DNA of 64,000 nucleotides from assembly GCA_037576215.1 (NCBI GenBank), contig JBANDB010000003.1, positions 5,332,001 through 5,396,000 on the forward strand. The letters run 5' to 3'. Position 1 is the stretch's first letter. The number at the start of each line of letters is the position of its first letter. The notes beneath the pieces are model-generated. The model saw only the letters and a list, made by a program, of their open reading frames with translations, had not been told where the DNA came from and made no database searches. Both the position numbers and the translations under genes were made by a program. This document shows positions 21,495-64,000 of this stretch, piece by piece. This stretch comes from Armillaria gallica (lineage: Eukaryota; Basidiomycota; Agaricomycetes; Agaricales; Physalacriaceae).

Positions 21495-22967
21495 TTGGAT
21501 ATCAAGCAAGCACAATCATCTGACTCTGCAGCCACTGATGGTTTCCATCAGGCCAAATTCTCCACTCCCACTTCCCCCTCTCGGTGGTCCATAGATGAAT
21601 CAGACATTCTCCATCTTGATAATCACATCTATGTCCCAGACTCTGAAGATCTCCATCTCTGTGTCCTACAGAATAATCACAATCACATCTTGGCAGGTCA
21701 TTTTGGCCAAAATCAGACCCTGAAATTAGTCTGACGGAGCTATACCTGGCCACAGATGCATGAATATGTTCGCCACTACATCAAATCTTGTACGGTTTGC
21801 AGTCGCAACAAGACACCTAGACATCATCCTTATGGTTTGCTTAAACCCTTGCTAGTTCTGGAGTGCCCATGGGATTCCATTTCAATGGATTTCATTGAAC
21901 AGTTACTGGACTCCAACAGATTCACCGCTATCCTTGTAGTAATTGACCATGCAAGCAAGCAAGCCATCTTTATCCCTACACACGACACTATTAATTCTGA
22001 AGAACTCACCCGGTTATTCATCATTCATGTTTTCTCCAAGCATGGTGTCCCTAACCACATCACCTCTGACCACGGCTCCGAGTTTGTCTCCCAATTCATG
22101 TGCACCCTTGCCAAAGCCCTGGACATGGAACTTCACTTCACTTCTGGTTATCACCTGGAGGCTGATGGACAAATGGAATGTGCAAATCAAACCTTGGAAC
22201 AGTACATCCGCATCTATTGTTCTTATCAACAGGACAACTGGGATTTACTACTACCCATTGCAGAGTTTGCATACAACAATGCTCTGAACGCCTCCACCAG
22301 AATCTCTCCGTTCTTTGCCAACAAAGGTTACCATCCTAATATCACTGTCCATCCTGAATGTGATATCACCTCCACTCGGGCCCGTGACTTTGTAGTCAAT
22401 CTAGATGAACTACACCAATTCCTACACAACGAAATCACCCAGGCACAGTCTCGCTACAAGATCCAAGCAGACAAGCACCAGAATCTGGCTTCTCCATTCA
22501 AAGTAGGTGACAGAGTCTTCCTTAGTTCCAAGCATATCAAGACTACTCGCCCTACTGCGAAATTCACGGAGAAATTCCTTGGCCCATTCAAAATCATAGC
22601 TCAACCAGGCTCCCATTCCTTCACTCTCAAACACCTGTCAGACCTCCATGCCATTCATCCTGTCTTCCATGTACCGCAACTGGAACCTGTAGAAGAAAAC
22701 ACTATTTCCAATCGCACTCAACCTCCGCCACCTCTGGTGGAAGTCAATGGTGAAGAGCAGTATGAAATAGCTCAGATTCTCGACTCCAAGCTTGACCACC
22801 GGTTCCAGTGCCCTCTCCTCTACAGGATTCAATGGTTAGGCTACAAAGGCACTGACGAAGAATTTGCTTGGTTACCAGCCACCAAGTTTTCCACCAATGA
22901 CTTCATTGAGGATTTCCATTGCTGCTATCCAGACAAACCAGGACCATTAGCCAAAGTCACCATCTGA
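21495..22967 (+). pseudogene. pol: Gypsy-2 integrase with C-terminal chromodomain
   Basis: A 403-codon frame is open from 21756 to 22967; the same frame upstream (from 21495) is broken by a TGA at about 21732. The zinc-binding part ends CTVC at about 21790. Catalytic acidic residues lie in SMDFIEQL, ITSDHGSEF and ADGQMECANQTLEQY, so the DDE triad is retained. A chromodomain-like tail at about 22765-22940 includes YRIQWLGYKGTDEEFAWLP. In chromoviruses this tail directs integration to heterochromatin. The start at 21756 is only where the open frame begins; the protein would be part of Pol. Confidence 0.88.
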
Positions 22968-31284: not shown

Positions 31285-31616
31285 GGTGATATGCTCAGTA
31301 ACAGTGAGTGGCAAATAGACTAGTGGCTAGCAATGAACACTAACAAAACTAAACCTATCACCAACTCTACACTTGTCACCAATGTATTGAATTTAGGTTT
31401 TTCAAGTACAATAGAAGCACTCTACAGACTTCAATAATCAAAGAAAGTTGTTTCAAAGATGTTTTATTTGTTACTAGTGAGCTATACAAGTATACAAGTG
31501 TACTACTCACACTAGCAAGGTGGGTAAGACACAATTGGGTGAATAGTGATTTGGTTTGAGCTACTGCACTTGCTCTGACTGGGACTGCTTTGAACTAGTG
31601 GCTCTCTTGGCCCTAT
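31285..31616 (-). repeat. Gypsy-A-type LTR 3' part and leader, left half of a split LTR
   Basis: The reverse complement matches Gypsy-A 34380-34700: the LTR end (AATTCAATACA), the primer-binding-like TTGGTGACAAGTG and the leader GTTGGTGATAGG. The LTR is interrupted at 31616 by Gypsy-3 and resumes at 49151-49155 (duplicated CCTAT) and continues to 49568. Confidence 0.8.
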
Positions 31617-32054: not shown

Positions 32055-33383
32055 ATGGAGAACGACGATGCACGTATTATAGCCATCTCACTAGGAATAC
32101 CTAGTGCCACTCTCCTCTCCATCGCTCTCATTCTTGCAATCAGGTTTTGTTAGAGGCCGTGGCAATGAATAGAGGCACACCACGTCACCCCCACAGTCAC
32201 TACTACCCCCACCAACGATTCCAATGGCATCCTGCTTGAGCAGCAGCTGCCCCGAATCTTTGCACCCATACCACAGCGACCGATCCCAATCAACGAGCTC
32301 GCTGGGTCAGGAGTCGACGAAGAGGAGGAGAACATTCCTGAGTCGCCTTCTCCCATCATCCCGGAGAGAAGGCCTCCTACCACTCCCAGAAGGAACATGC
32401 CCATCCTCACCATCGCCACCGCGCCTCCCTCTCCCAACTATGTCGCGTATATCCCTCGAACTCCCTCACCTGGCACATACGCTTGATTCACCGCCAGTGT
32501 CAGGGGATTCGACATGGGCCAAGACATCCGATCCATCGCCCCAGCCACCAATTACAACACTTGGGCTAACAGGGACCCTACTCCACCCCTGCAGCCGGTA
32601 TCGCTTCCGAGGAGTTCTGGGATAACGTCGTCATCCCCTACAGCACCTACTTCAGTTGGGACCAGCCGGTACAGAACCGGGAGCTCACACTCGAGCCTGT
32701 ACCAGCCATCGAGGAACCCGTCACCAGCTCCTCTACCCACCTTTACCCCACAAGACGCTCCGGTTGGCGAAACATCAGGTCCCTGCACAGATCCCCACAC
32801 CATCCCCCTCAAGCAAGTGCTTGGGAGCAGCTCGCCCAGCGATTCCGAGAGCAGCCACAGCCCAAAGGCCCAAGCCAAGGAGCTTGGCCAAGCGACTCAA
32901 GCGACTCAAACACTGCGGTCGAGCCACCAAGACCCCTACACCTTTCCCCTCGACCACACTCAATGGAATCCCCCAGTCGACCACTGAGTCGTCGTGCGAG
33001 AACACGCCCAACAACCCCAATCCTGATGACGCTAACTGACACCATCAATTTTTATAATGACACAGAAGATGACCTCATAGTTCCTATTCCCGCTTTATTA
33101 AGGCAAGCAAACTACTGAGATATCTATAATTATTTTGCCTATGAATTACCTTTTGCTCCGGTTTGAGGGAACTCCCAAGCTGGAAACGATTATTTTATGA
33201 AGAAACAGAGAGGTCTCCCAGCAGATGAGATCTTACAGTATGAGGCAGAGTGAAACACTCGTCTCTTATGGAACGAAATACACTTGGATGCTGTAATCGA
33301 GGAATTTCCCCCTTACAAAGAAGCCGCACAGGAGATTGATGATACGCTGTCTACGCGTTCACACCTAGATTTTGCAATTTTAT
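32055..33383 (+). pseudogene. gag: Gypsy-3 Gag N-terminal part with hydrophobic leader
   Basis: ATG at 32055 opens a 32-codon stretch whose residues 8-29 are strongly hydrophobic (IAISLGIPSATLLSIALILA), ended by TAG at 32151. The same frame continues, with another stop, into a Pro/Glu-rich segment (PRIFAPIPQRPIPINEL, EEEENIPESPSP). From 32514 a Ser/Pro-rich frame is open for 157 codons. A last piece at 33030-33383 reads DTINFYNDTEDDLIVPIPA and DAVIEEFPPYKEAAQEIDD. The zinc knuckle and capsid parts are absent, replaced by the Gypsy-A insertion. Confidence 0.6.
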
Positions 33384-34611
33384 AATAATACTATTGCATA
33401 TCTATCTTACATTAGTGATACTTAAAGGACTATAGCTGAGGCTTCAAGATGATAGTTAGACTAGTATGCGACTAGTAGAGCCAGGACTTAGATGCGATAC
33501 TACTAGTGGGTTAAATCTACCAGCTGGCCATACTAGTGACTTGAATGCTAACAGGGCTAAGTGAATACAGCCACTAGTGGACAAGTAATACAACTAGCGC
33601 ACCAAACAAGAAGCAGAGGACACAAATCTCATAACGTTTGGTCACTAGTGAGTCAATCTGGGCATAAACACCTAAGTCAGGTTAATTAGTCACGTGGCAA
33701 TCTCGAAACAGGACTTAGAAATGAATTAGCAACAGATTAACCTTGCGGCAGATCTGATGAGTGCAATACAGATCCATTGCGATCGGTGCTAGTATAGCCA
33801 GGCTGCGCCTTCGATCACAATCGACAGCTGTTACAGGCACGCTCGCCTGGCTAGTCATTTATCCTTGGCACTAGTGGAGCGTCACTGGGCCCAGGACATG
33901 GAATACAACCGCTAGCAGAGCTCCTAGGCTCACTAGTCAGCAAGCGACCATTTCTAGGCTGACTATTGTGTGATTATTCACCATTATTCGTGACTAGCCA
34001 AGAAATCCTTATCAATAATACCCCTCTAGTCAGTTATTTATATCTTGATTGTACCTTGTTTGTCAGTATATAAGTAGTAGAATAGGTGCACGCGAGGCGG
34101 AGGCAAGCCATCCCCGCAATTGTGACCTACTAGTCAGTATCTAGTGCCCCAATTAAAGGCTTTTGTGCTTAACCTCGATGAAGCGGCTACTAGTCACTAA
34201 GTTACCCATAGCATTGAGTGAATAGAAGTGTCTTAGAGCAATCTTTTGTGTCCTGCAAAGGCCAAGAGTGTTTTGAAGTTAGTTCAAGCGAGTTCTCAAA
34301 GTTTAAAGTATTATTCTTAGGCCAAGAGCACCACTAGTCTGCCTAGAAAGCGACTAGTCAAGTGTTTATTCACTTGTAAGACATTACAGGGCCAAGAGAG
34401 CCACTAGTTCGAAGCAGTCCCAGTCAGAGCGAGCACAGTAGCTCAAGTCAAGTCACTATCCATCCAATTGTGTCTTACCCACCCCGCTAGTGCAAGTAGT
34501 ATGCTTGTATAGCTCACTAGTAACGAAATAAAACATCTTTAAACAACTTTCCTTGATTATTGAAGTCTGCAGAGTGCTTCTACCATACTCGAAACACCCA
34601 AATTCAATACA
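33384..34611 (+). repeat. Gypsy-A 5' LTR (start approximate)
   Basis: It ends AATTCAATACA at 34611, followed by TTGGTGATAAGTG as probable primer-binding site. The part from about 33970 onward matches the split reverse-strand LTR at 31371-31616 and 49151-49568. TATA-like TATATAAGTAG lies at about 34068-34078. It contains about fourteen ACTAGT hexamers. No second LTR of this copy is present to define its 5' edge. Confidence 0.6.
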
Positions 34612-35059
34612 TTGGTGATAAGTGTAGAGTTAGTGATTGGTTTAGTGTTGTTGGTGTTCATTGCCAGCCTCTGGTCCATTTGCCACTTGCCATTGCCAAG
34701 CATATCATCTGGAGCCCACCGCGAGGGAGTTTCAGACTTGATAATCTCATTGAATTAAGACTTTTATTTGACACTAGTCTTGTTAAATAAACTACTATTC
34801 AACCTAGCAGCTTGTATGCAATCTGTCTAACCAAGCCTCGGTGAAAGCAAAGGGCAAAGTTAGAGCAACAGAGCCCACACAAGCATCGTCTTCGAGGCCA
34901 GCACCTAATAGTGCCACCACAAGACCTAAAGGAAGATCAACAGCCAATTAAAAAGCTGCTGGTGTTGGAGTCCTGTCTAACTATGACTTACTAAAGAATA
35001 AACGAAGTGCAACTGCACCGCCCGATAGCCCACAAGCTAGGACAGAGCAGCGAATCAAT

Positions 35060-36682
35060 GTGAATCTTAACGTCCAACAGACAAGACCCCGTGCACCATG
35101 CCCATGGCCAAGACCTTCCCCCTCTAGTGGATCAACAAACCCACTAGCCCCTGGACAATCAAACTCCCAGTCCATTCAAACCGCTAGTAGACCGATCATG
35201 TCCGCTAGCACCCAAAAGATGCCTAGACCGACGTCTAGGGACACGCCCAAGTTTGATAGCGATGAGCCTGAGAACTTGCATCGTTTCCTTGGTCAGATGG
35301 AGGATTTATTCTCCGACTATAGCATCACCAACGACGACGAGAAGAAGAAGAAACTAGTGAGGTACACGGATGCACGTACTGAAGAAGAATGGCAAGCATT
35401 GGAGGAGTATGATGGTGGTACCTTCGCAGAGTTCAAGGATGTGATCTTGAAGAACTATCCAGAGGCAGCAGATGCAGAGACAGGCACTTGGGAGAGGCTC
35501 ACACGTATTTCATGTAAGTTCTTGAACCTTGGGGCTGACGAGCACGAGTTGTACCTGAAATTCAAGCGCAGGTTCTTGACTGAAGCCAAGAAACTACAGA
35601 AGCCTCCAGCGCTAGTCATGAACCGTGAACTAGTGGAAAAATTCACTGAGTTGTTGTCACCCACGTTTAAAGAAAACATTGCATTGCGATTGAGTATCAA
35701 GCGTGGAATCAAAAATGCAACAAGTGCTCCTGCCCCAGCTCCTGCTGCTGTTGCTGCACCTGTAGTCGTGAAACCCATCAAAAGACGGGAAGATATGCAC
35801 ACCCTTGAAGAGGTTGTTGCTGAAGCAGATGATATTGCTCTCAACAGCTCTACTAGTTACCTTCTGTCGGCGACTAGTGGAAGTGTATCATCGACCGGAG
35901 CCACTAGTGGTTCTGGAATCAAGGCAGAATTTAAAGATGTGAAGCAGCAAGTAGCTGCTTTACTTGATCACATTGATGTGAGTGAGAAACAGGCAAAGGA
36001 GCGTCAAGAACAAATATTGAAAGCCTTTCAACAAGGTGGAAATAATAGCTCCTCGTCTAGGCAATCACGACCTCAGAATGAACACTCGGGAGCGGGACCA
36101 AATGACAACTGCTGGTATGACTGGAAGCCTGGACATTATGTGAAGAATTGCCAGAACATCCAGAAGCATGTAGCAGAAGGTTTGTTGAAGCTCGTCAATA
36201 AGAAGTTCATGATGATAGACGGGACAGCTATCCTGCGCGAGCCAGCTCATCTCTGCTCAATGGATCATATGCTTGCATCGTTGAATAAAAGGCAAGAACA
36301 GATGTTCTGGGAAGATGTTAGTGGGCCCGCTGGTATATTCAATATCAACGTACCTGATAACACTTCCTTGTATGCGAACAAGCCTCGAGATGCTAGAGAC
36401 GAAGTAATTGACAAACTTCGCCAAGATCTGCAATATTGGCAGACTAGTACTCATGTTCCAACATCAGTTCAGCCTCAGTTGTTACAAGCACCTGTACCAT
36501 CTACTAGTAGTCAGCCAATGAATCAATCCTTTGACCCTAATGTGTTTTTGAACCAAATGAGGTCACTATTCAATCAGGCCGGTAGTCAGAATGCAACTAG
36601 TGGCCAGAACTTTGAAGGTCAGTATGTTGCCACACGCACTAGTGGTGGTGAGTCTTCCCAACAGGGTTTCGAAAGGGTCTGA
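35060..36682 (+). CDS. gag: Gypsy-A Gag
   Basis: An open frame of 540 codons. The true start is probably upstream, because the same frame continues to about 34850 (KAKGKVRATEPTQ) with one TAA; 35060 is a GTG and not a safe start. The capsid-like region is at residues 50-230 (DEPENLHRFLGQMEDLF, YDGGTFAEFKDVILKNYPEA, WERLTRI). A zinc-knuckle-like segment at about 36108-36150 reads CWYDWKPGHYVKNC: the second Cys of the usual CxxC is missing. The C-terminus is Gln/Ser/Asn-rich. The stop overlaps the next start as TGATG. Confidence 0.8.
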   Translation: MNLNVQQTRPRAPCPWPRPSPSSGSTNPLAPGQSNSQSIQTASRPIMSASTQKMPRPTSRDTPKFDSDEPENLHRFLGQMEDLFSDYSITNDDEKKKKLVRYTDARTEEEWQALEEYDGGTFAEFKDVILKNYPEAADAETGTWERLTRISCKFLNLGADEHELYLKFKRRFLTEAKKLQKPPALVMNRELVEKFTELLSPTFKENIALRLSIKRGIKNATSAPAPAPAAVAAPVVVKPIKRREDMHTLEEVVAEADDIALNSSTSYLLSATSGSVSSTGATSGSGIKAEFKDVKQQVAALLDHIDVSEKQAKERQEQILKAFQQGGNNSSSSRQSRPQNEHSGAGPNDNCWYDWKPGHYVKNCQNIQKHVAEGLLKLVNKKFMMIDGTAILREPAHLCSMDHMLASLNKRQEQMFWEDVSGPAGIFNINVPDNTSLYANKPRDARDEVIDKLRQDLQYWQTSTHVPTSVQPQLLQAPVPSTSSQPMNQSFDPNVFLNQMRSLFNQAGSQNATSGQNFEGQYVATRTSGGESSQQGFERV

Positions 36683-37950
36683 TGAAGGCTATGGGGAAGA
36701 ATAAGTTGATCCCTATGACTATTCCCCATAAACAGCCGGAGGACCATTTTAAAAACCAACCAAAGGGAACTGAACCGAAGAAATACGTAAAGAAAGTGAT
36801 TGAACCAGTGTCTGAAGAATCTGAAGAATCTGAAAACGAAATACCAGTACCGAGAGTACCCACTAGTAAGAAACCGGTTACTGTAGAAGATGCTAGTGAT
36901 GATGAGGATGAGGCCCCACACCGAGAACTACCTTTTAGGAAAGTTCCGAGTGTAAGTTTCACGCCCCTTCCCTCAGATAGTGCAAACAAAAAGAAAACTA
37001 AAGTAAGATTCAATGAATCCAAAGCACCAGCATATAAATATACGGTGCCTATCCATAAGGAAGGTAGAGTGCAGGATGTCGCATCTAAAGTACTGAAAAC
37101 ACCTATTGTGTTGAATGCAGAAGAACTTATGGATCTGTCAGAGCCATTAAGGAAAGAGATCGCTAAGTTGATGGCTAAGAAAAGAATTTTGATGCAGCCA
37201 GTGACTGAACAGATGTATAGTGTGGGGGAGACTCAACCTGAGTCTGACCCGTTGCCATTTAATGAGACTAGTGATGAAGAAGACACGACTAGTGAGGATT
37301 TGTCCTTGAAGTCTGACACGATTGACATCCGTGACTTGCTATCTGGGATGTTTATGGCTGCGCAATTCAATGTTGGCTTGATACCAGCTGGCTCTCTAAT
37401 TATGTCCGACCCGTATCTTCAGTATCTTGACTCACTAGTGCCAGGAGAAAAGCCTAAGCAGGTAATAGTCGCGAAAGACTCGGCTAGTCTGCGAGCTGTG
37501 TATCCAGTAATCAATGGCGCAGGCGAAGAAGAAAGTGTAGTTGACGGAGGCTTGCAGATAGTATTGATGGCTAGTATGATAGCAACCAAGCTCAGAGTAG
37601 CTTGGGATCCTGACATTACCATCCATATGCAGAGTGTGAATGGTCAACTAGAGAAAACCTTAGGGCTAGCGAGGAATGTTCCGTTCCTTTTCAATGATAT
37701 CACTGTGTACTTGCAAATACACATCATTGCTAGTCCAGCATATAAAGTACTACTAGGATGTCCGTTTGATGTCCTCACTGAGAGTGTGATCAGGAATCAC
37801 GCAGACGGTGGCCAAATCATTACTATCACTGATCCAAACACTGGTCGAAGGTGCACTATTCCAACCTTCTTGAGGGGTGCGCCTCCTCGGGTTGCAAAAG
37901 CTGTTCCTAAGGCTACTGAAGAGGGTTTTCATTTGAACTTGATGAATTGA
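36682..37950 (+). CDS. Gypsy-A ORF2 with aspartic-protease-like domain
   Basis: A frame of 422 codons is open from the ATG at 36682, which shares its A with the gag stop. The N-terminal half is charged (KKYVKKVIEPVSEESEESE) with the segment DLSEPLRKEIAKLMAKKRIL. The retropepsin-like domain is at about 37530-37880: LGLARNVPFLFNDITVYLQI then SPAYKVLLGCPFDVLTESV. The active site that should read Asp-Ser/Thr-Gly is VVDGGLQ, so the hydroxyl residue is replaced by Gly and the protease may be inactive. The ORF ends in TGA overlapping the next ATG (TGATG at 37948-37952). Confidence 0.8.
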   Translation: MKAMGKNKLIPMTIPHKQPEDHFKNQPKGTEPKKYVKKVIEPVSEESEESENEIPVPRVPTSKKPVTVEDASDDEDEAPHRELPFRKVPSVSFTPLPSDSANKKKTKVRFNESKAPAYKYTVPIHKEGRVQDVASKVLKTPIVLNAEELMDLSEPLRKEIAKLMAKKRILMQPVTEQMYSVGETQPESDPLPFNETSDEEDTTSEDLSLKSDTIDIRDLLSGMFMAAQFNVGLIPAGSLIMSDPYLQYLDSLVPGEKPKQVIVAKDSASLRAVYPVINGAGEEESVVDGGLQIVLMASMIATKLRVAWDPDITIHMQSVNGQLEKTLGLARNVPFLFNDITVYLQIHIIASPAYKVLLGCPFDVLTESVIRNHADGGQIITITDPNTGRRCTIPTFLRGAPPRVAKAVPKATEEGFHLNLMN

Positions 37951-40442
37951 TGAACAATCAAGGAGAGTTAGCCCTGCAAATCATGCAGACTAGTGATGGT
38001 AAGTTTGAGATTGAAGGCTATATGAAGCCAAAAGAAGGCGCTAGTTTCTCAGAGAAAGAGCTACGTGACAGCTTCCTCATGGCTTCGATGGCTAGCAAAG
38101 AAAACCTTTTGCAAGATGAGCAAGCCAAGGGACTATTGAACTCTTACTTCCAAGGTAAGGTAGTTCCAGAAGGCTATAAAATGCAATATCATGTGTGCGA
38201 GCACACTAGTGATGGCTCTCCATTACTAGATGATACTGAAATCCCAATCTATAATGTACTAGTTGATAACTTGTGTGCAAAATCAAAGACTAGCCAACCT
38301 ACAAAGAAAAAGACGGCACTAGTCCCCGGTTTTGAGCACCTTGGTGTGCGCATGAAGAGCCCCGACTTTAAGCCAGTCACAGTGCTCGCTAGTAAGAAAT
38401 ATAAGCCTGTGGCACTAAAAGTAAAGCCACTATTAGGCAATCTGCCAGACAAGTTTTGAATAGTGAGAGACATTAAGGGTGATCCCCTCAAGGACATCCC
38501 ACTATTGAGCACTAGCCCGCCAGAATATGTGCCTACAGCATGCTATACCCCTGAAAGAAAAGCTAAGATTGACGAAAACCATCCAGAAGGATTTCTATGG
38601 CCAGAAGAGCGCAAGCTAATGCACCATTTTATGACTATCCAAGAGCAAGCTTTTGCTTGGGATGACACGGAACGTGGGCATTTCTGAGAGGACTTCTTCC
38701 TGCCAATAGATATTCCTGTAGTACCGCACACTCCATGGGTTTTGAAGAATATCCCCATCCCATCTGGAATCTATGAGGAAGTCTGTCGGATTATTAAATT
38801 CAAGATCGACGCTGGTGTATATGAGCCATCTAATTCCTCCTACAGATTGAGGTGGTTCTGTGTAATTAAGAAAGATGGTAAAAGTCTTCGACTAGTGCAT
38901 AGTTTGGGGCCTCTGAATGCAGTGGCTATCGCGCATTCTGGGATTCTGCCGGCCACAGATGAACTATCCGAGCATTTTGCAGGAAGAGCGTGTGGAGGGT
39001 GTTTGGACCTGTATGTTGGATATGACAAGCAAGATATCGCTATTGGATCCAGAGACTATACTACGTTCCAAACTCCTTTCGGTTTGATGCGACTAGTGAA
39101 ATTACCAATGGGTTGGACTAATTCAGTACCAATATTCCATGAAGATGTAACGCATATCCTACGAGAAGAAATACCACATGTCACTCATCCCTATATCGAT
39201 GATGTACCTGTACGAGGGCCCAAAACTTGCTATGAAACTGAGGATGGGGGCTTTGAGACTATCCCAGAAAACCCTGGGATTCATCATTTTGTATGGGAAC
39301 ATATGCAGAACATGAATCGAGTGGTTCAACAGATGAAATATTGTGGAGGTACCTTCTCTGGACCTAAGATGTTCTTGTGTGTTGAGGAAATGATGGTGGT
39401 TGGTCATCTATGCATGTATGAAGGAAGAAAAATCGAACCTGATAGAGCTGGAGTCATCAGTCGTTGGGGTCCTTGCCAGCACCTAACGGATGTATGAGCC
39501 TTCCTGGGCACTTGTGGAGTCTGTCAAAAGTTTATAAGGGACTATTCGAAGATAGCGGAACCGCTAGTCAAGTTGACGCGACTCAATGTACCCTTCGAGT
39601 GGGAGACTGAACAGCAGCTAGCCATGGACAAGCTCAAGCATGCAGTCGTGACTAGTCCGGCTATTCAACCAATTGACCTCACTAGTGATGCAGAAGTGGG
39701 TCTATGCGTTGATACTTTGTACAAAGCTGTTGGATTCTACATCTATCAAGTCAATGAGAAGGATCCTACTAAGTGCTATTATGTGCGCTTTGGCTCGATC
39801 ACTATGACCGAAAGGGAAGTGCGGTTTTCACAGCCCAAACGCGAGTTGTATGGACTATTGCGAGCTTTAAAGGCTTGTCAGTATTGGCTTATTGGAATTC
39901 ACAACTTAGTGGTTGAAACTGATGCGCAGTACATTAAGGGTATGCTAAGCAACCCCGGAATGGGACCAAATGCCACTATCAATCATTGGATAGAGGATAT
40001 CTTGATGTTTCATTTCACCCTTCGACATGTGAAAGGTAGTACTTTCCCTGCTGACGGACTATCGAGGCGAGATGCGCAACCTGGTAATGAGATCCATCCT
40101 GACTTGGAGGATTACGAGCTAGAGGACCATGGCCCTTTGCAGTTTGAAGTAGTGGAAGAGACTAGGGAGCTGCCGAAAGAACTAGAGGAATTTAAGAATG
40201 AAATTGATAGTCGAGGTGGCTACCTGCACGCACTAGCCACTGGTATCGATGATTTTTCTGTAGAATTGGACGAAGCATGCTCTCGTGAACTAGAACTCAG
40301 AAATCTTTACTTAGCACAGGAGAAAACCAATGAAACCATATGCCAGTTCTTGAAAGCGACTCCACTCATTCCTGATCTCGAGTATAAGTTCGATCCTAAC
40401 AAAAGAGAGGACTACCCAGAGAAACAACTAGTAGTGGACTAG
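37950..40442 (+). pseudogene. pol: Gypsy-A Pol: reverse transcriptase and RNase H
   Basis: The frame starts at the ATG overlapping the ORF2 stop and is open apart from TGA at 38457, 38685 and 39495 and TAG at 40440. Reverse transcriptase motifs are FCVIKKDGKSLRLVHSLGPL, TTFQTPFGLMRLVKLPMGWT and the catalytic PYIDDVPV at about 39191. RNase H follows with LCVDTLYKAVGFYIYQV, SQPKRELYGLLRALKA and VVETDAQYIKGML. The DGLSRRDAQPG motif ends the domain near 40080. The lineage is the gypsy clade lacking a chromodomain that is widespread in Agaricomycetes. With only a few point stops it is relatively young. Confidence 0.85.
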
Positions 40443-40477
40443 CGCAAGATGGATGGCTGCCACATATCAGGACTTAG

Positions 40478-42004
40478 TTGAGGAACCCTAGACACTGGCC
40501 AGAAGGACTTAACGACAAGCAGTACTTGACTTTCAAGCAGTACTGCCGTAACTTCTTCTTGGACAAAGAAGGCAGACTATATAGATGCAGTACTGAAGGA
40601 GACCACCGGCTAGTAGTGGATAAAGAGCATCGAATGCATATGATGAGATCAGCACACGACTCGTTAGGACATAGAGGCTTTTACATGACTAAGTCACTGT
40701 TGGAGCAACGGTTTTGGTGGCCAGAGTTGGAACGAGACGTCAGTTGGTATGTCAAGTCTTGTCATTTATGTCAAGTCAGACAGAAGACTATGGTCCATAT
40801 TCCACCCTCTGTCACCAAAACACCTTCACTATTCCAGAAAGTACACTGTGATACTATGGTTATGACCCCGGTTTCTAATAAGTGCAGGTATATAGTTCAT
40901 GCACACGATTCGTTATTGTCTTGGCCAGAAGCAAGGGCCTTACAGCAAGAAAATGCTAAAGCAATTGTGGTTTGGTTCTTTGAGGATGTCATATGCAGGT
41001 GGGGCTGTCCCAACAAAATAGTAACTGATAACAGTGGACCTTGGGTTGCAGTTATACAGTGGCTAAGTGACAAGTATGGCATCACCGGCATAAAGATCAC
41101 TCCTTACAACTTGCAAGCGAATGGAAAAATTGAAAGAGGCCATTGGGACATTCGTCAATCACTATTTAAGGCAACTAGTGGCAACCCAAAGAAGTGGTTT
41201 TACTTCCTACCGCATGTGTTGTGGGCAGACCGTATCACTATCAAACGCGGTACCGGTTGCTCACCATATTTCATGGCACTAGGCGCACATCCAATAGTAC
41301 CCCTTGACGTAGTTGAAGCTACTTGGCTAGTCAAGCCCCCAAGTGGAATCTTGAGCACCGAAGACCTTATTTGTATGAGGGTGACAGCACTAGCCAAGCA
41401 CGCTAAACATGTAATGGCCATGCGACAGAAAATTAATAAGAATAAGCTCGATACTGTACTACACTACCAATGCGAGCACAAGGCCACTATCGTCGATTAC
41501 GACTTCAAACCAGGTCGACTAGTGCTTATGCGGAACACATGAGTCGAGGAAAGTCTCGATAGCAAGATGGAGCCGAGGTACTTGGGACCACTAGTCATTA
41601 TCAGAAGGACTAGGGGTGGTTCTTATGTCTTAGCAGAGTTGGATGGATCTCTAGTGGGCAGCACAGTCGCTCAGTTTAGAGTAATTCCATACCATGCGAG
41701 GCATAGTATTGAGTTACCCACGAAAATTCATGATTTGATCGATGTAAGTCCCCAAACTCTTAAGGAGTTGGTGACTAGTGACGAGTCTGTCCCAACAGAA
41801 TATCACTATCGACCCTTAGGCAAGAAACTATATGGTATAGACCGAGTTAGGCTGCAACAGAGCGACACTAGTGAGTCTGACAGCGAAGATTCAGGTTCAG
41901 AGGCCGAAGGATACCTTCAGCTGGACGAATATGATAGCAATAGTGATGAAGACAATGAAGTCCCCATCACTAGTCAACTTAGAAGCTCAAAAACTGCAGG
42001 CTAG
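40478..42004 (+). pseudogene. pol: Gypsy-A integrase
   Basis: The frame is displaced relative to the reverse transcriptase frame, with a break at about 40440-40478. The HHCC zinc domain reads HDSLGHRGFYMTKSLLEQR and CHLCQVRQ. Catalytic residues lie in HCDTMVM, IVTDNSGPW and QANGKIERGHWDIRQ. A TGA at 41540 separates the last part, MEPRYLGPLVIIRRTRGGSY, which continues in the same frame to the acidic tail ending at 42004. No chromodomain is present. Confidence 0.85.
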
Positions 42005-42149
42005 AACGGTCAAACACACTTTATATTGCTAAGTAACGATGGTGTGTGCTAGATACTGTATCTAAGCAGTTGGAAATTATGAGAAACGACAGACTAGTGA
42101 TTGAAAACTTTTATATATGGCAACTAGTGACTGTTCCGAATGACTGGTA

Positions 42150-43223
42150 CTAGTCAATCTTGGAACTAGAAGCAACGGGAGCTGGAGATTTGTCTTCCAT
42201 AGGTACCGGGAGACAACTTTCGAGCTGCTTGACGACTTGGCCATGATGAGTGACCACAAACTCACGGTACTTGAGCAAGTACTCGATCTTGTGGGTCGTA
42301 GCGATCACGTCATTGTGAAGATCAGCCTCTCTAGAGTGCAAAACGCTCTCGGAAGGATTGACATGATCTCCAGCACTGACTAGCGTGGCCGCAGCGTCGA
42401 CAGTGCTCTGACTAGCCTTGTTGTTGATAGCTAAGTCAGCCACTAGTAAAAGAAAGAAGGTCAATAGCGCATCACAAAGCTCACTAGTAAGCACATACCA
42501 GCAATAGTGAAAGGGGAATCCTTGAAAGCATGGTCAGCTGAGGCACGAGGACGCTTCCTGGCTTGGATAGCAGCCTTGTTGGCCTTCCCTTTGGCGATAA
42601 TCACTTCGGCAGCCTGGTAATTGTGTAAAGATGAGTCAAAGTCAGCTACTAGTGATATAAAATCACCTGAATAGCCTCGGCACGACGCTCTGCCTTCTCC
42701 TTTGCCCTCTGAAAGAAAACCTTAGACTAGTTTACCGGAAGTAGGGTCACGATTGACAATGACGTCGACATCTTCGTCGATATTCATCTGTTCAAACTGT
42801 GAAATGACGGTGTCAGCCTTGCGACGAACAGTAGCTAAGATAAACAATACCGAGTCAGTTTCCTGCGGTGCATTGGAAGCATCAGGATTACCCATGACCG
42901 TATCCTCCTCGGTTGCTGCGACAACACTAGCCTCTTCATCGGATGAGTCCTTGACAATAGCCCATGACTTAGCAAGACGATGGCTTCGTTTGGCAGGCTA
43001 ATGGTCGAAACAGTCAGTCAGAAAGCGAAAGAACAATCACTAGTGAGGTACTCACTGCCTTGGAAGTCTTAGCCTTGCCACTAGTGGCCACGGTTTTGGC
43101 GGGAGCAGCAGGAGCAGGATCAGGAGCAGAAGGAGTGGTAACAGTGGCAATAGCATTCGCTAGAGCCGCTGCCCACTTTTTGTGCTCGCTATGAATAGTC
43201 CCAGTAAAGGAATGACAGGCCAT
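42150..43223 (-). pseudogene. Antisense accessory gene of Gypsy-A, spliced, 5' end cut by R3
   Basis: The gene lies on the opposite strand downstream of integrase. The first visible exon (ending at 43056) encodes HSEHKKWAAALANAIATV and an Ala/Pro/Thr-rich linker. GT-AG introns are 43055-42998 (58 nt), 42666-42614 (53 nt) and 42499-42443 (57 nt); the exon at 42708-42667 reads RAKEKAERRAEAIQ, and the next joins in frame. A further junction near 42735-42709 is unresolved (only 27 nt between GT and AG). The last exon (KIEYLLKYREFVVTHHGQVV) ends at a TAG at 42150. Two of the introns contain ACTAGT in full and the first contains it too. The protein is small and charged, with an acidic middle (SSDEEASVVAATEED) and no recognised domain. 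The start lies at the junction with R3, so the N-terminus may be lost. Confidence 0.65.
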
Positions 43224-49150: not shown

Positions 49151-49568
49151 CCTATGCTGCTTCCTACAAGTGATAAACACTTGACTAGTTGCACTCTAGG
49201 CTGACTAGTGATGCTCTTGGTCTAAGAATAATACTTTAAACTTTGAGAACTTGCTTGAACTAACTTTGAAACACTCTTGGCCTTTGCAGGACACAAAAGA
49301 TTGCTCTAAGACACTTCAATTCACTCAATACTATGAGTAACTTAGTGACTAGTAGCCACTTCATTGAAGTTAAGCACAAAAGCCTTTAATTGGGGCACTA
49401 GATACTGACTAGTAGGTCACAATTGTGGGGGTTGCTTGCCTAAACTGCATGTGCACCTATTCTACTACTTATATACTGACAAACAAGGTACAATCAAGAT
49501 ATAAATAACTGACTAGAGAAGTATTATTGATAAGGATTTCTTGGCTAGTTATGAATAATGGTGAATAA
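49151..49568 (-). repeat. Right half of the Gypsy-A-type LTR split by Gypsy-3
   Basis: The reverse complement matches 33970-34390 of Gypsy-A, including the words ACTAGTCACTAAGTT and TTTGTGTCCTGCAAAGGCC. It begins exactly at the CCTAT duplication and stops near GTGAATAAT at 49568, where hAT-like sequence starts. Divergence from the Gypsy-A LTR is substantial, so it is an older copy. Confidence 0.8.
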
Positions 49569-50572
49569 TAAAGAGTCACACAGTTTCCTACCCAGGTGCA
49601 CCTGGACCCAACCTGCTGGGTCCTAGGTACCAAAATGCCTGACCCAGGACCTATACCCAGACCCGGGTCTTAAAAACCCAGGTCTTGCAGGTGTGGGTTC
49701 CAGGTTTGCCACTGGTGCCTGCAGGTTCTATACACCTAGAATGTCTATTGGGGTTTTCGAGGTCGTTGAATCCGAATATCCTATCAGATCTTTGATCAGA
49801 GATCTCTCTGATCCAAAATAGCCATCAGAAGCTATTTTCATATCAGTTTCAATTGTTCATCAGTTTCTTTCTGAGTGCACTTCATCATATAAAATTCATT
49901 TGCATCAGCGGTAAAGTGTTTTCAAGGTCGTAGAATCTGAATATTATATCAGATCATAAATTGAGAATGATCTCGAGCCATGGTAAGTGTTTGAAGCTTT
50001 TTCTTCATTTTCTTGATCTTTTTCTATTTATTGTGACAAGCTATGCATGAGCCAAATTCAAGATGTCTGTGAGTGTTTATATGTTTTCAATAGTGTAGAA
50101 TTTGATTATAGTCACTGATCAATATATGGAGTCAATCCTGAGGCACAATACATATCTGGAGCTACTTTGTTATGTCTTGCAGTCTTTTACATATTATTCT
50201 CCAGCTCACAGACATGCCCCATAAATTGTTTGAAGGGTCATCTAAGGGTTTTCTGAGTTACAAAATTTGAATATGACCTCCGATCATTGATATGACAACT
50301 CCCTGAATAACTATACCTGTATTAAACCAAATTTACATATTTCTTTGTGGGTTTTTCATTTTTTTTCACCTCTCAGTCCTCTCAGAGCTCACATATTTTA
50401 TCTATGAAGTGTGCATGGGTCCTAGGCAGGTCACCCATGGGTGGAACTGTCTCAGAATGCTTTGACCTGGACCTGTTAACCCACAGGTCTGACTTTTTAA
50501 TAAATTGAAAACCCAGACCCAGGTCTTTCCACGGATCCATCCAGGTCCTAGTAGGAACCATGCAACTCTTTA
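49569..50572. mobile_element. hAT-like end region or MITE with CCCAGGTC subterminal repeats
   Basis: The left edge AAAGAGTCACACAGTTTCCTAC and the reverse complement of 50551-50572 share AAAGAGT...GTTCCTAC, so the stretch has imperfect inverted ends. Near both ends the words ACCCAGGTC, CTGGGTCCTAGG and CCTGGACC recur in both orientations. The interior (49740-50300) carries at least four degenerate units of TTTTC(A/G)AGGTCGT(A/T)GAATC followed by a GATC-rich hairpin. No 8-bp target duplication was confirmed. It is either a 1-kb non-autonomous hAT or the left end of hAT2. Confidence 0.45.
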
Positions 50573-62515: not shown

Positions 62516-64000
62516 TCATCGAGAGACAAGACCAAGGCCTATCGTGTGAGCACGGTGGAGTATTGTGGACAATGGTTTTGTTAGGATGTCCGCTGTCATG
62601 GAGTGTGTAGGGATCCAAGCGGTGGAGAAGAGGCCAGTGCGTAGGTGTTCACAAATGAAGTGGTAGCAGATGTCTACATGCTTGAGATGGGGAGAGCTGG
62701 ATTGTGAATTGGCAATGGTGAGAGAACTTTCATTGTCAGATAGCATGGGGAATGGTGTGGTCATAGGCAGTGAAAGCGCTTGTTGAAATAGACGAATCCA
62801 AAGTAGCTCTTTTAGCAAGTGAGTGAGGGCCATATACTCGGATTCGGTTGAGGATAACACTGTGGATTTCTGCTTGGAACTGAACCATGATACGAGGCCT
62901 CCATAGAGGAAGATCGAGTAGCCCAAGAAACTTTGACGGTCGACTTCATCAGTGCCCCAGTCTGAATCGGAGAATGCGACATCAGTGAGGGGGATATCGA
63001 ATTCGGCAAGGGTGTCAGCTACTTGGGCACCCCCATATTCAAGGGCCAGGCTTTTCGTTCCAGTGAGGTAACGAAGGACACTTTTCACGGCGGCGGCGAC
63101 CTCACGAGTGAGTTTAGCATTGTACTGGCCAAGTGCAGCAGCAGTGAATGCTATGTCAGGGTGTGTGCAAATGGCAGGGTATAGTAGTTGACCAATGAGG
63201 CGCTGGTAAAAGTGGGTTAATTCATTTTCGGCAACTTCAGGGAGCTGGTTCTCGCTAGGTTCCAAGCTGTGAAGTTTATTGCATAGAGGGACAGAGGTGG
63301 GATTGACGTCAGCCATGGCGTAAGACTGTAGTAGTTCCTCAATGTAGTCTGTTTGGGAGATCCAAAGTTTCTTGGTCTGCTGATCTCGTTCGATCTTCAT
63401 GCCAAGGAAGATGTCGACGGGACCTAAGTCATTCATTTTGAATTTCTTGTTGAGTTTGACCATGAGCCAGGTGTAGAGTTGGGGAGAGTTGGTTGCCATT
63501 AGGCCGTCATCGACATGAACAGGGATGATGACGAAGAGATCCACGCCATTGGCAGGCATTGGGATGGATGGGTTGGGAGGTGAGGACCACTTCCCATAGA
63601 ATACGGCAGGGTCGACAATGCAACTCTCGAGGCCTAGTGAGTTCAATGCAGCTGACAAGGTGACAAACCATTCATGTGAAGACTGTTTGAGGCCATACAG
63701 CGCTTTGAGAAGATGGAGGACTTTGGAGGGATCAGACAAAGGGAAGCCAGGGATCTGCCATATGTATATTTCCTGGGTCAGTGGTGCATTAAGGAAGGCG
63801 GCTTTAATGTCGAATGTGTAAAGTTCGAGGTCTTCCTTGGCAGCGTAAGCAAGGAGGATGCAAATACTGACCATCTTTGCAACTGGGGCATACGTGTCTC
63901 CATAGTCATCAGGGCATTGTGAGAAGCCCTGGGCAACCAGTCTAGCCTTTTCGATGACTACAGGGTGGGACTTCCATGTGAAAGTCCAACGGGAACCGAT
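62516..64000 (-). CDS. pol: Copia Pol, reverse transcriptase and RNase H (5' end outside window)
   Basis: The minus-strand frame is open from the window edge at 64000 (IGSRWTFTWKSHP) to the stop at 62516, nearly 500 codons without interruption. Reverse transcriptase motifs are ARLVAQGFSQ, TFDIKAAFLNAPLTQEIYIW, ALYGLKQSSHEWF and the catalytic VHVDDGLM. RNase H includes SDSDWGTDEVDRQSFLGYSI, SSTESEYMAL, LSDNESSLTIAN and HVDICYHFICEHL, ending ADILTKPLS. This is Ty1/copia domain order with integrase expected upstream, beyond the window. The lack of stops, unlike every gypsy copy nearby, marks it as the youngest or only recently silenced element. Confidence 0.9.
   Translation of the reverse strand: MGSRWTFTWKSHPVVIEKARLVAQGFSQCPDDYGDTYAPVAKMVSICILLAYAAKEDLELYTFDIKAAFLNAPLTQEIYIWQIPGFPLSDPSKVLHLLKALYGLKQSSHEWFVTLSAALNSLGLESCIVDPAVFYGKWSSPPNPSIPMPANGVDLFVIIPVHVDDGLMATNSPQLYTWLMVKLNKKFKMNDLGPVDIFLGMKIERDQQTKKLWISQTDYIEELLQSYAMADVNPTSVPLCNKLHSLEPSENQLPEVAENELTHFYQRLIGQLLYPAICTHPDIAFTAAALGQYNAKLTREVAAAVKSVLRYLTGTKSLALEYGGAQVADTLAEFDIPLTDVAFSDSDWGTDEVDRQSFLGYSIFLYGGLVSWFSSKQKSTVLSSTESEYMALTHLLKELLWIRLFQQALSLPMTTPFPMLSDNESSLTIANSQSSSPHLKHVDICYHFICEHLRTGLFSTAWIPTHSMTADILTKPLSTILHRAHTIGLGLVSR

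What the first reader, a model, noticed from the sequence alone, without database searches (positions are those of the whole stretch)
33440..43100. Gypsy-A is saturated with the palindrome ACTAGT
By eye I count roughly fifty ACTAGT words in about 9.7 kb, where chance would give two or three; CTAG-containing variants add more. They occur in the LTR, the leader, the Gag and Pol frames and the introns of the antisense gene. In coding sequence they sit in both permitted frames (Thr-Ser as ACT AGT, and Leu-Val as CTA GTN), the third frame being excluded because it would create TAG. Presence across coding frames, LTR and introns points to selection or mutation acting on DNA or RNA, not protein.
Basis: seen in the sequence. 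Interest (0 to 1): 0.88.

Follow-up and report, generated by a model that had tools for sequence, protein, structure and literature searches.

The report
Transposon written in ACTAGT helix lattice
A jumping gene (a Gypsy retrotransposon) in a fungus that is likely an Armillaria carries 52 copies of the six-letter word ACTAGT, which tend to sit at whole turns of the DNA double helix and so face one side, a pattern that likely lets a protein, predicted to be the element's own, recognise and coat it.

Summary
Confirmed: 33440-43100 holds 52 ACTAGT against 3.2 expected; 2,000 random resamples reached at most 11. No tandem array explains it, and the host flanks are near expectation.

The new result is spacing. 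Sites favour whole multiples of 10.25 bp; the LTR's 14 ACTAGT fit one lattice (R 0.89; 0 of 1,000 nulls). Codons obey the word: 15 of 20 Thr-Ser pairs are ACT AGT (2.7 expected). In a relative (C6 copy) every intron of the antisense gene holds one. Outside the word, TA and AA/TT lie in phase and GC out of phase; such TA periodicity is in neither host flank and in 1 of 18 pieces of other Gypsy elements.

Other Gypsy families use other words (CCWGG, AAAGTTCG). Words above host controls occur in 8 of 11 pieces with an antisense gene and 0 of 5 without; a stricter gene cut-off weakens this (6 of 8, 2 of 8).

Best reading: a private, helically phased address word, likely read by the antisense-encoded protein on wrapped DNA. 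It works like VANC targets in Arabidopsis VANDAL transposons; membership is not shown. Main rival: a pure nucleosome-wrapping code.

The parts
33340..34707 (+). 5' LTR (TG...CA, 1,368 bp) with 14 ACTAGT on one 10.257-bp lattice
   Evidence: homology edges against five LTR copies elsewhere in the genome; lattice R 0.89, 0 of 1,000 nulls
33460..43085 (.). the array of 52 ACTAGT sites (102 with the variants RCTAGY and ACTATT/AATAGT), phased at about 10.25 bp
35060..36682 (+). gag-position ORF (540 aa) with several ACT AGT words; no Pfam match
36682..37950 (+). sense ORF (422 aa), no Pfam match
39573..40442 (+). RT RNase H-like domains (RT_RNaseH_2 E 1.8e-11, RT_RNaseH E 1.4e-10)
40478..41542 (+). 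integrase piece (Integrase_H2C2 E 1.6e-18)
42149..43215 (-). 3' remnant of the antisense gene; first exon, part of exon 2 and about 99 bp inside are missing in this copy. By comparison with the C6 copy, ACTAGT at 42442, 42483, 42648, 42726 and 43039 lie in introns
   Evidence: comparison with the C6 copy; intron assignment of the window sites read by eye

Best explanation
ACTAGT is a DNA address word of this Ty3/Gypsy family: its 52 copies (102 with close variants) favour whole multiples of 10.25 bp, so that they tend to lie on one face of the helix, and they are likely bound by a sequence-specific protein, predicted to be the product of the element's own antisense gene, acting on wrapped (probably nucleosomal) DNA. 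Shown here: enrichment, enrichment of variants on both strands, helical phasing, codon choice obeying the word, retention between diverged copies, in-phase TA/AA and out-of-phase GC outside the word, an antisense multi-exon gene (predicted) with the word in every intron of the C6 copy, and different words in other families.
For: Enrichment 52 against 3.2. Phase: best period 10.2, mean cosine 0.71 over 45 pairs up to 160 bp, 0 of 2,000 for free and for codon-keeping jitter; bootstrap 10.19-10.34; for ACTAGT alone each of seven bins up to 450 bp peaks at 10.10-10.30 in a scan of 9.6-11.15; the LTR fits one lattice, R 0.89. Sequence-specific reading: the enriched variants are in phase (ACTAGC/GCTAGT 0.70, ACTATT/AATAGT 0.73), while ACTAAT/ATTAGT and ACTACT/AGTAGT are neither enriched nor clearly in phase; of 111 CTAG, 52 are A-CTAG-T. 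Codons: 15 of 20 Thr-Ser pairs are ACT AGT (2.7 expected; 4.0 if the words themselves are counted into codon usage) and 12 of 14 Leu-Val pairs begin CTA GT (3.8 expected). Antisense gene of the C6 copy: 7 ACTAGT in 272 bp of intron, each of 5 introns hit, 1 in 1,227 bp of exon. Retention exceeded matched hexamers in 16 of 16 ordered copy comparisons run (of 132 possible among 12 copies), nominal p < 0.05 in 11. Co-occurrence: words above the highest of 7 host controls in 8 of 11 pieces with an antisense gene (score 13 or more) and 0 of 5 without. The antisense protein diverges faster than integrase: 34% against 67% identity in L046.
Against: No binding was measured. The antisense protein matches no Pfam family above cut-off and its predicted fold gives no informative match. 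The co-occurrence depends on a cut-off set after seeing the scores: at 20 it is 6 of 8 with and 2 of 8 without. L058's predicted gene is one 64-aa exon; sense-strand controls reach 18.4, so L046 (19.4), L054 (18.3) and L058 (13.7) are not clear by score, though L046 has protein homology; L052 and L061, counted as without, score slightly above their shuffles; the word score asked for 5 or more copies, and L061 has a 4-copy 8-mer at 6.2 against the control maximum of 6.1. The pieces are not independent. L051's word sits mostly in a repeated stretch near the 3' end of its piece, with weaker phase (32-81 of 1,000 nulls for its forms). CCWGG is not helically phased, so phasing is not general. ACTAGA/TCTAGT is in phase (0.56, z 2.6) though hardly enriched (9 against 7.1). 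The in-phase WW/SS pattern also fits a nucleosome code with no specific reader.
Confidence: 0.45

Rival explanations
1. Nucleosome code alone: ACTAGT is a strong rotational wrapping signal (CTAG with the minor groove inward) and the element is selected to be tightly or precisely nucleosomal; no specific reader is needed.
For: CTAG is one of two major experimentally found core elements for nucleosome affinity, with order CTAG>CTGG>CNNG (PMC2880596, passages). Period 10.25, not 10.5. TA +0.19, AAA/TTT +0.19 and GC -0.10 relative to the lattice after masking all 4-of-6 matches; at four other test periods the largest z of any class was 2.6 in size. TA periodicity z 12.2 in the element, -0.4 and 0.6 in host flanks, under 2.1 in size in 17 of 18 other pieces. 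Besides CTAG, the contexts ATAT, ATAG, ATAA and GTAA are in phase too (z 3.8-4.7).
Against: TTAA, the other core element, is depleted (27 against 41) and hardly phased (z 1.6); CTAA/TTAG, ATAC, GTAC and CTAC are unphased; the outer A and T of ACTAGT are specified (52 of 111 CTAG); CCWGG, the word of another family, is unphased (AAGTTCG has too few close pairs to tell). Within the LTR alone, masked TA was not in phase (z 0.7), though AAA/TTT was (z 3.9); in the C6 stretch upstream of the antisense gene the WW/SS pattern was not seen (14 sites).
Confidence: 0.3
2. A host DNA-binding factor, not an element protein, reads ACTAGT (as enhancer, silencer nucleation or genome-defence mark).
For: All DNA-level evidence above fits any dimeric reader; 14 sites lie in the LTR, where promoters of such elements sit (general knowledge).
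Against: Pieces of 15 other Gypsy loci in the same genome carry 0-3 ACTAGT each (18 pieces) and some have other words, which points to family-specific readers. The saturation extends through codons.
Confidence: 0.15
3. Mutation bias or neutral spread (tandem duplication, gene conversion, nucleosome-dependent mutation) made the words.
For: Nucleosomes can modulate mutation rate (PMC7070026, search listing only).
Confidence: 0.05
4. RNA-level signal (packaging, dimerisation or splicing word ACUAGU).
For: Present in the sense ORFs and in introns of the antisense gene.
Against: 10.25-bp phasing, and variants enriched on both strands, point to double-stranded DNA.
Confidence: 0.05

Closest known systems
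VANDAL transposons with VANC anti-silencing proteins (Arabidopsis; PMC5735166, abstract and Results section read)
   Same: Family-specific short motif at high density, rare in related families; motif lies in introns of the element's accessory gene; accessory protein changes faster than the enzymatic one; related families have different motifs.
   Different: VANDALs are DNA transposons of plants with a transposase; their motif is mainly non-coding, in one orientation and often in tandem repeats. Here a fungal Ty3/Gypsy element carries a palindrome also inside codons, without tandem arrays of it, on a 10.25-bp lattice. Binding and anti-silencing are not shown here.
Retand-lineage plant Gypsy elements with antisense ORFs between pol and the 3' LTR (PMC11963269, passages read)
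   Same: Antisense additional gene between pol and the 3' LTR; the plant proteins are predicted to bind DNA.
   Different: No TRP28 domain was found in the fungal proteins; no word saturation is described in the passages read.
Nucleosome-positioning sequences rich in CTAG/TA steps (PMC2880596, passages read; the Lowary-Widom selected clones are recalled)
   Same: CTAG cores with about 10-bp repeats, WW in phase and SS out of phase.
   Different: One exact hexamer over a whole mobile element, TTAA not used, lattice coherent over the LTR (about 1 kb).

Membership tests
Ty3/Gypsy LTR retrotransposon | LTRs ending TG...CA at both ends of the element | tested here: met
   33340-34707 in the window, five LTR copies 83-93% identical; the truncated window copy has no 3' LTR, the C6 relative has one at C6:4068460-4069828, 95% identical, same orientation
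Ty3/Gypsy LTR retrotransposon | RNase H before integrase in pol | tested here: met
   RNase H-like domains at 39573-40442, Integrase_H2C2 at 40478-41542; no match for the reverse transcriptase core or the rve integrase core at the cut-off in this broken copy
VANDAL/VANC anti-silencing system | dense motif private to the family | tested here: met
   52 here, 0-3 in each of 18 pieces (15 loci) of other Gypsy elements that I fetched, of 115 integrase hits listed
VANDAL/VANC anti-silencing system | motif mainly in non-coding DNA | tested here: not met
   densest in LTR and introns, but 24 sites lie in sense ORFs
VANDAL/VANC anti-silencing system | DNA transposon with a Mutator-type transposase | tested here: not met
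   LTRs, RNase H and integrase domains instead
VANDAL/VANC anti-silencing system | element protein binds the motif and removes DNA methylation | not testable with these tools
   needs EMSA and methylation maps
Retand-type antisense-ORF Gypsy | antisense gene between pol and 3' LTR | tested here: met
   C6 copy: 409 aa, six predicted exons, antisense, 3' of integrase and about 3.3 kb before the 3' LTR; homologues annotated in Armillaria
Retand-type antisense-ORF Gypsy | TRP28 (Transposase 28) domain | tested here: not met
   no Pfam match above cut-off
Nucleosome-positioning sequence | about 10.2-bp WW/SS alternation | tested here: met
Nucleosome-positioning sequence | use of TTAA/YTAR as well as CTAG | tested here: not met
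   TTAA 27 against 41 expected, CTAA/TTAG unphased
Nucleosome-positioning sequence | measured nucleosome occupancy or rotational setting | not testable with these tools
   no MNase data available

The most novel reading that the evidence does not exclude
Gypsy elements of this fungus each carry a private DNA word read by their own fast-evolving antisense-encoded protein; the ACTAGT family has written its word on a nucleosomal helix lattice through LTR, codons and introns, so that the protein coats wrapped element DNA as a whole and marks it as self against silencing.
Probability: 0.35. Interest if true: 0.95.

Novelty: new variant of a known kind. Interest (0 to 1): 0.86.

Why it matters
How a transposon is recognised as one unit, by itself or by its host, is an open question. 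Here a short word overrides synonymous codon choice and even enriches Thr-Ser pairs (20 against 7.4 expected; Leu-Val pairs, 14 against 12.1, are not enriched), and it keeps helical phase over a kilobase of LTR. Either outcome can be settled with simple biochemistry.

Tried and rejected

Faults of my own: the density block had an offset error (zeros) and was redone; five of twelve copies were in the wrong orientation and the call was redone. In one search overlapping words make p values nominal, and parts of the more distant copies align poorly. While checking I found that the 3' LTR had not been seen in the pieces then held (second search empty), so I fetched one more 4-kb piece of the C6 copy and found it.
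Full report
WHAT IS THERE. The region is a Ty3/Gypsy LTR retrotransposon. Its 5' LTR is 33340-34707 (TG...CA), bounded by comparison with five LTR copies elsewhere in the genome. RT RNase H-like domains lie at 39573-40442 and an integrase zinc-binding domain at 40478-41542. The copy is broken: the ORFs are interrupted, homology to the C6 relative stops at 43215 and about 99 bp are missing inside the antisense gene. Relatives with longer open frames exist in the genome; the C6 relative has its 3' LTR at C6:4068460-4069828. The genome has 86 Mb in 28 contigs. All 56 listed homologues of the antisense protein are from Armillaria or Desarmillaria (best 87%, A. gallica; 7,996 candidates scored), so the host is inferred to be an Armillaria.

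THE COUNT. ACTAGT occurs 52 times in 33440-43100; the dinucleotide expectation is 3.2. 2,000 resamples of 33340-43215 reached at most 11. Flanks are near expectation. Genome-wide, three ACTAGT at gaps of 5-35 bp occur at 452 places against 27 for the reversed control. Density per kb: LTR 10.2, leader 2.8, gag-pol 4.0, antisense region 7.4. In the C6 copy the five introns of the antisense gene hold 7 in 272 bp and the exons 1 in 1,227 bp.

DNA, NOT PROTEIN. In the six sense ORFs examined 15 words are in the Thr-Ser frame, 9 in the Leu-Val frame, 0 in the stop frame. Of 20 Thr-Ser pairs 15 are ACT AGT (2.7 expected from codon usage outside the words); of 14 Leu-Val pairs 12 begin CTA GT (3.8 expected). 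Thr-Ser pairs themselves are in excess, 20 against 7.4; Leu-Val pairs are not, 14 against 12.1. The enriched variants are enriched on both strands.

HELICAL PHASE. Pair distances of ACTAGT up to 160 bp have best period 10.2 bp with mean cosine 0.71 (45 pairs). 0 of 2,000 nulls reached this, whether sites were jittered freely or in steps of three bases. The bootstrap range of the period is 10.19-10.34, and for ACTAGT alone the best period is 10.10-10.30 in each of seven bins from 8 to 450 bp; beyond 450 bp the signal is lost or unclear. LTR (33440-34560), coding part and 3' part were each tested at 10.2 bp: cosines for the relaxed word were 0.89, 0.40 and 0.58; for ACTAGT alone 0.89, 0.69 and 0.35, the last from 10 pairs with z 1.6. 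The full LTR's sites fit one lattice of 10.257 bp (14 sites, R 0.89, 0 of 1,000); five other LTR copies give R 0.80-0.95 (0, 0, 0, 0 and 1 of 1,000), though these share ancestry. Elsewhere in the element single long lattices do not exceed their nulls clearly; phase is local there. A stretch upstream of the antisense ATG in the C6 copy, absent from the window copy, is an independent replicate: 22 pairs, cosine 0.50. The enriched variants are in phase; ACTAAT/ATTAGT and ACTACT/AGTAGT are neither enriched nor clearly phased; ACTAGA/TCTAGT is phased (0.56) but hardly enriched.

THE REST OF THE DNA. With the sites masked, and also with every 4-of-6 match masked, TA (+0.19) and AAA/TTT (+0.19) lie in phase with the lattice and GC (-0.10) out of phase; four other test periods show nothing comparable. 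In the LTR alone masked TA is not in phase, AAA/TTT is; in the C6 upstream stretch neither is. The overall pattern is the known nucleosome pattern (PMC6735720, search listing). TA periodicity is z 12.2 in the element, -0.4 and 0.6 in the two host flanks, and under 2.1 in size in 17 of 18 pieces of other Gypsy elements; L053 has 4.2. WW in the right flank reaches 3.3; that flank holds an LTR fragment of this family. So the element as a whole looks tuned to a 10.25-bp wrap. Yet not every TA step takes part: of ten TA contexts outside the sites, CTAG, ATAT, ATAG, ATAA and GTAA are in phase (z 3.8-5.0), while TTAA, ATAC, CTAA, GTAC and CTAC are not (z 1.6 or less), and TTAA is depleted. With the exact hexamer excess I take this to mean a specific reader on wrapped DNA.

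OTHER FAMILIES. I fetched pieces of 15 other Gypsy loci (18 pieces; integrase 32-75% identical), of 115 integrase hits listed. They have 0-3 ACTAGT each. CCWGG occurs 44, 42 and 49 times in L048, L050 and L057, against 10.5 and 10.4 expected in the first two; in L057 43 of 49 are in long sense ORFs, spread over all three frames (17/11/15). AAAGTTCG occurs 12, 6 and 8 times in L054, L056 and L058, against 0.2-0.3. Top-word scores above the highest of seven host controls (6.1; one of the two controls at 6.1 owes it to an LTR fragment of this family) occur in 8 of 11 pieces with an antisense gene by my gene finder (score 13 or more) and in 0 of 5 without; at a cut-off of 20 it is 6 of 8 and 2 of 8. 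Caveats: L048 and L050, and L054 and L058, are related pairs; L051's word is repeat-borne; L046, L054 and L058 have middling gene scores. The antisense protein diverges faster than integrase: 34% against 67% for L046, and 27% over 115 columns in the profile match to the L047 type, whose integrase is 54% identical.

THE PROTEIN. 409 aa, no Pfam match. The model of an orthologue shows a confident N-terminal helical bundle (about residues 11-110), a disordered middle, a helix at 241-285 and a long C-terminal helix, both of low to middling confidence. A second antisense type carries C-x2-C-x4-H-x4-C, which I read as a zinc knuckle; one source names such a protein CCHC-type. No Pfam match confirms this.

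READING. The best account is an address word read by a specific protein, most likely the antisense product, on wrapped DNA, by analogy with VANC (PMC5735166, Results read), where dense private motifs, also in introns, direct an element protein that removes silencing. Binding, wrapping and anti-silencing are inferred. The nucleosome-only rival stays open, because CTAG is a leading nucleosome-positioning core (PMC2880596, passages).

Noticed in passing
31307-31614 and 49162-49569 (both reverse): Two further LTR fragments of the same family flank the element (87% and 92% identical) and hold 7 of the 16 ACTAGT outside it.
   Followed up: partly
L048, L050, L057: A related Gypsy family is saturated with CCWGG (42-49 per 5 kb) in all three codon frames, with an excess of A before and after it on the sense strand, and no helical phase.
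   Followed up: partly
L054, L056, L058: Other Gypsy pieces are enriched in AAAGTTCG (12, 6 and 8 copies against 0.2-0.3 expected).
   Followed up: partly
L051:3601-4500: Near the 3' end of this piece are several near-repeats holding GGGTTTGAACC, which resembles a tRNA T-arm or B-box (resemblance recalled); spaced near 10.3-bp multiples.
   Followed up: partly
A3 alignment (P0071-P0085): A second type of antisense protein carries a C-x2-C-x4-H-x4-C motif (zinc-knuckle spacing); no Pfam match confirms it.
   Followed up: partly
L063 (C6:4066000-4070000): The C6 copy has about 3.3 kb between the antisense gene's start and the 3' LTR, with further ACTAGT sites; what else it encodes was not studied.
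   Followed up: no
L046: The 67%-identical family copy looks decayed and CpG-poor (CpG-containing words are expected at only 0.0-0.3 by its dinucleotides).
   Followed up: no
42149-42154: Read by eye, the antisense reading of the window copy ends in a stop codon that overlaps an ACTAGT word (GAC TAG T).
   Followed up: no
62516-63874 (-) and 21756-22967 (+): Other retroelement genes: an RVT_2 reverse transcriptase and an rve integrase with Tf2-1-like SH3 domain.
   Followed up: no
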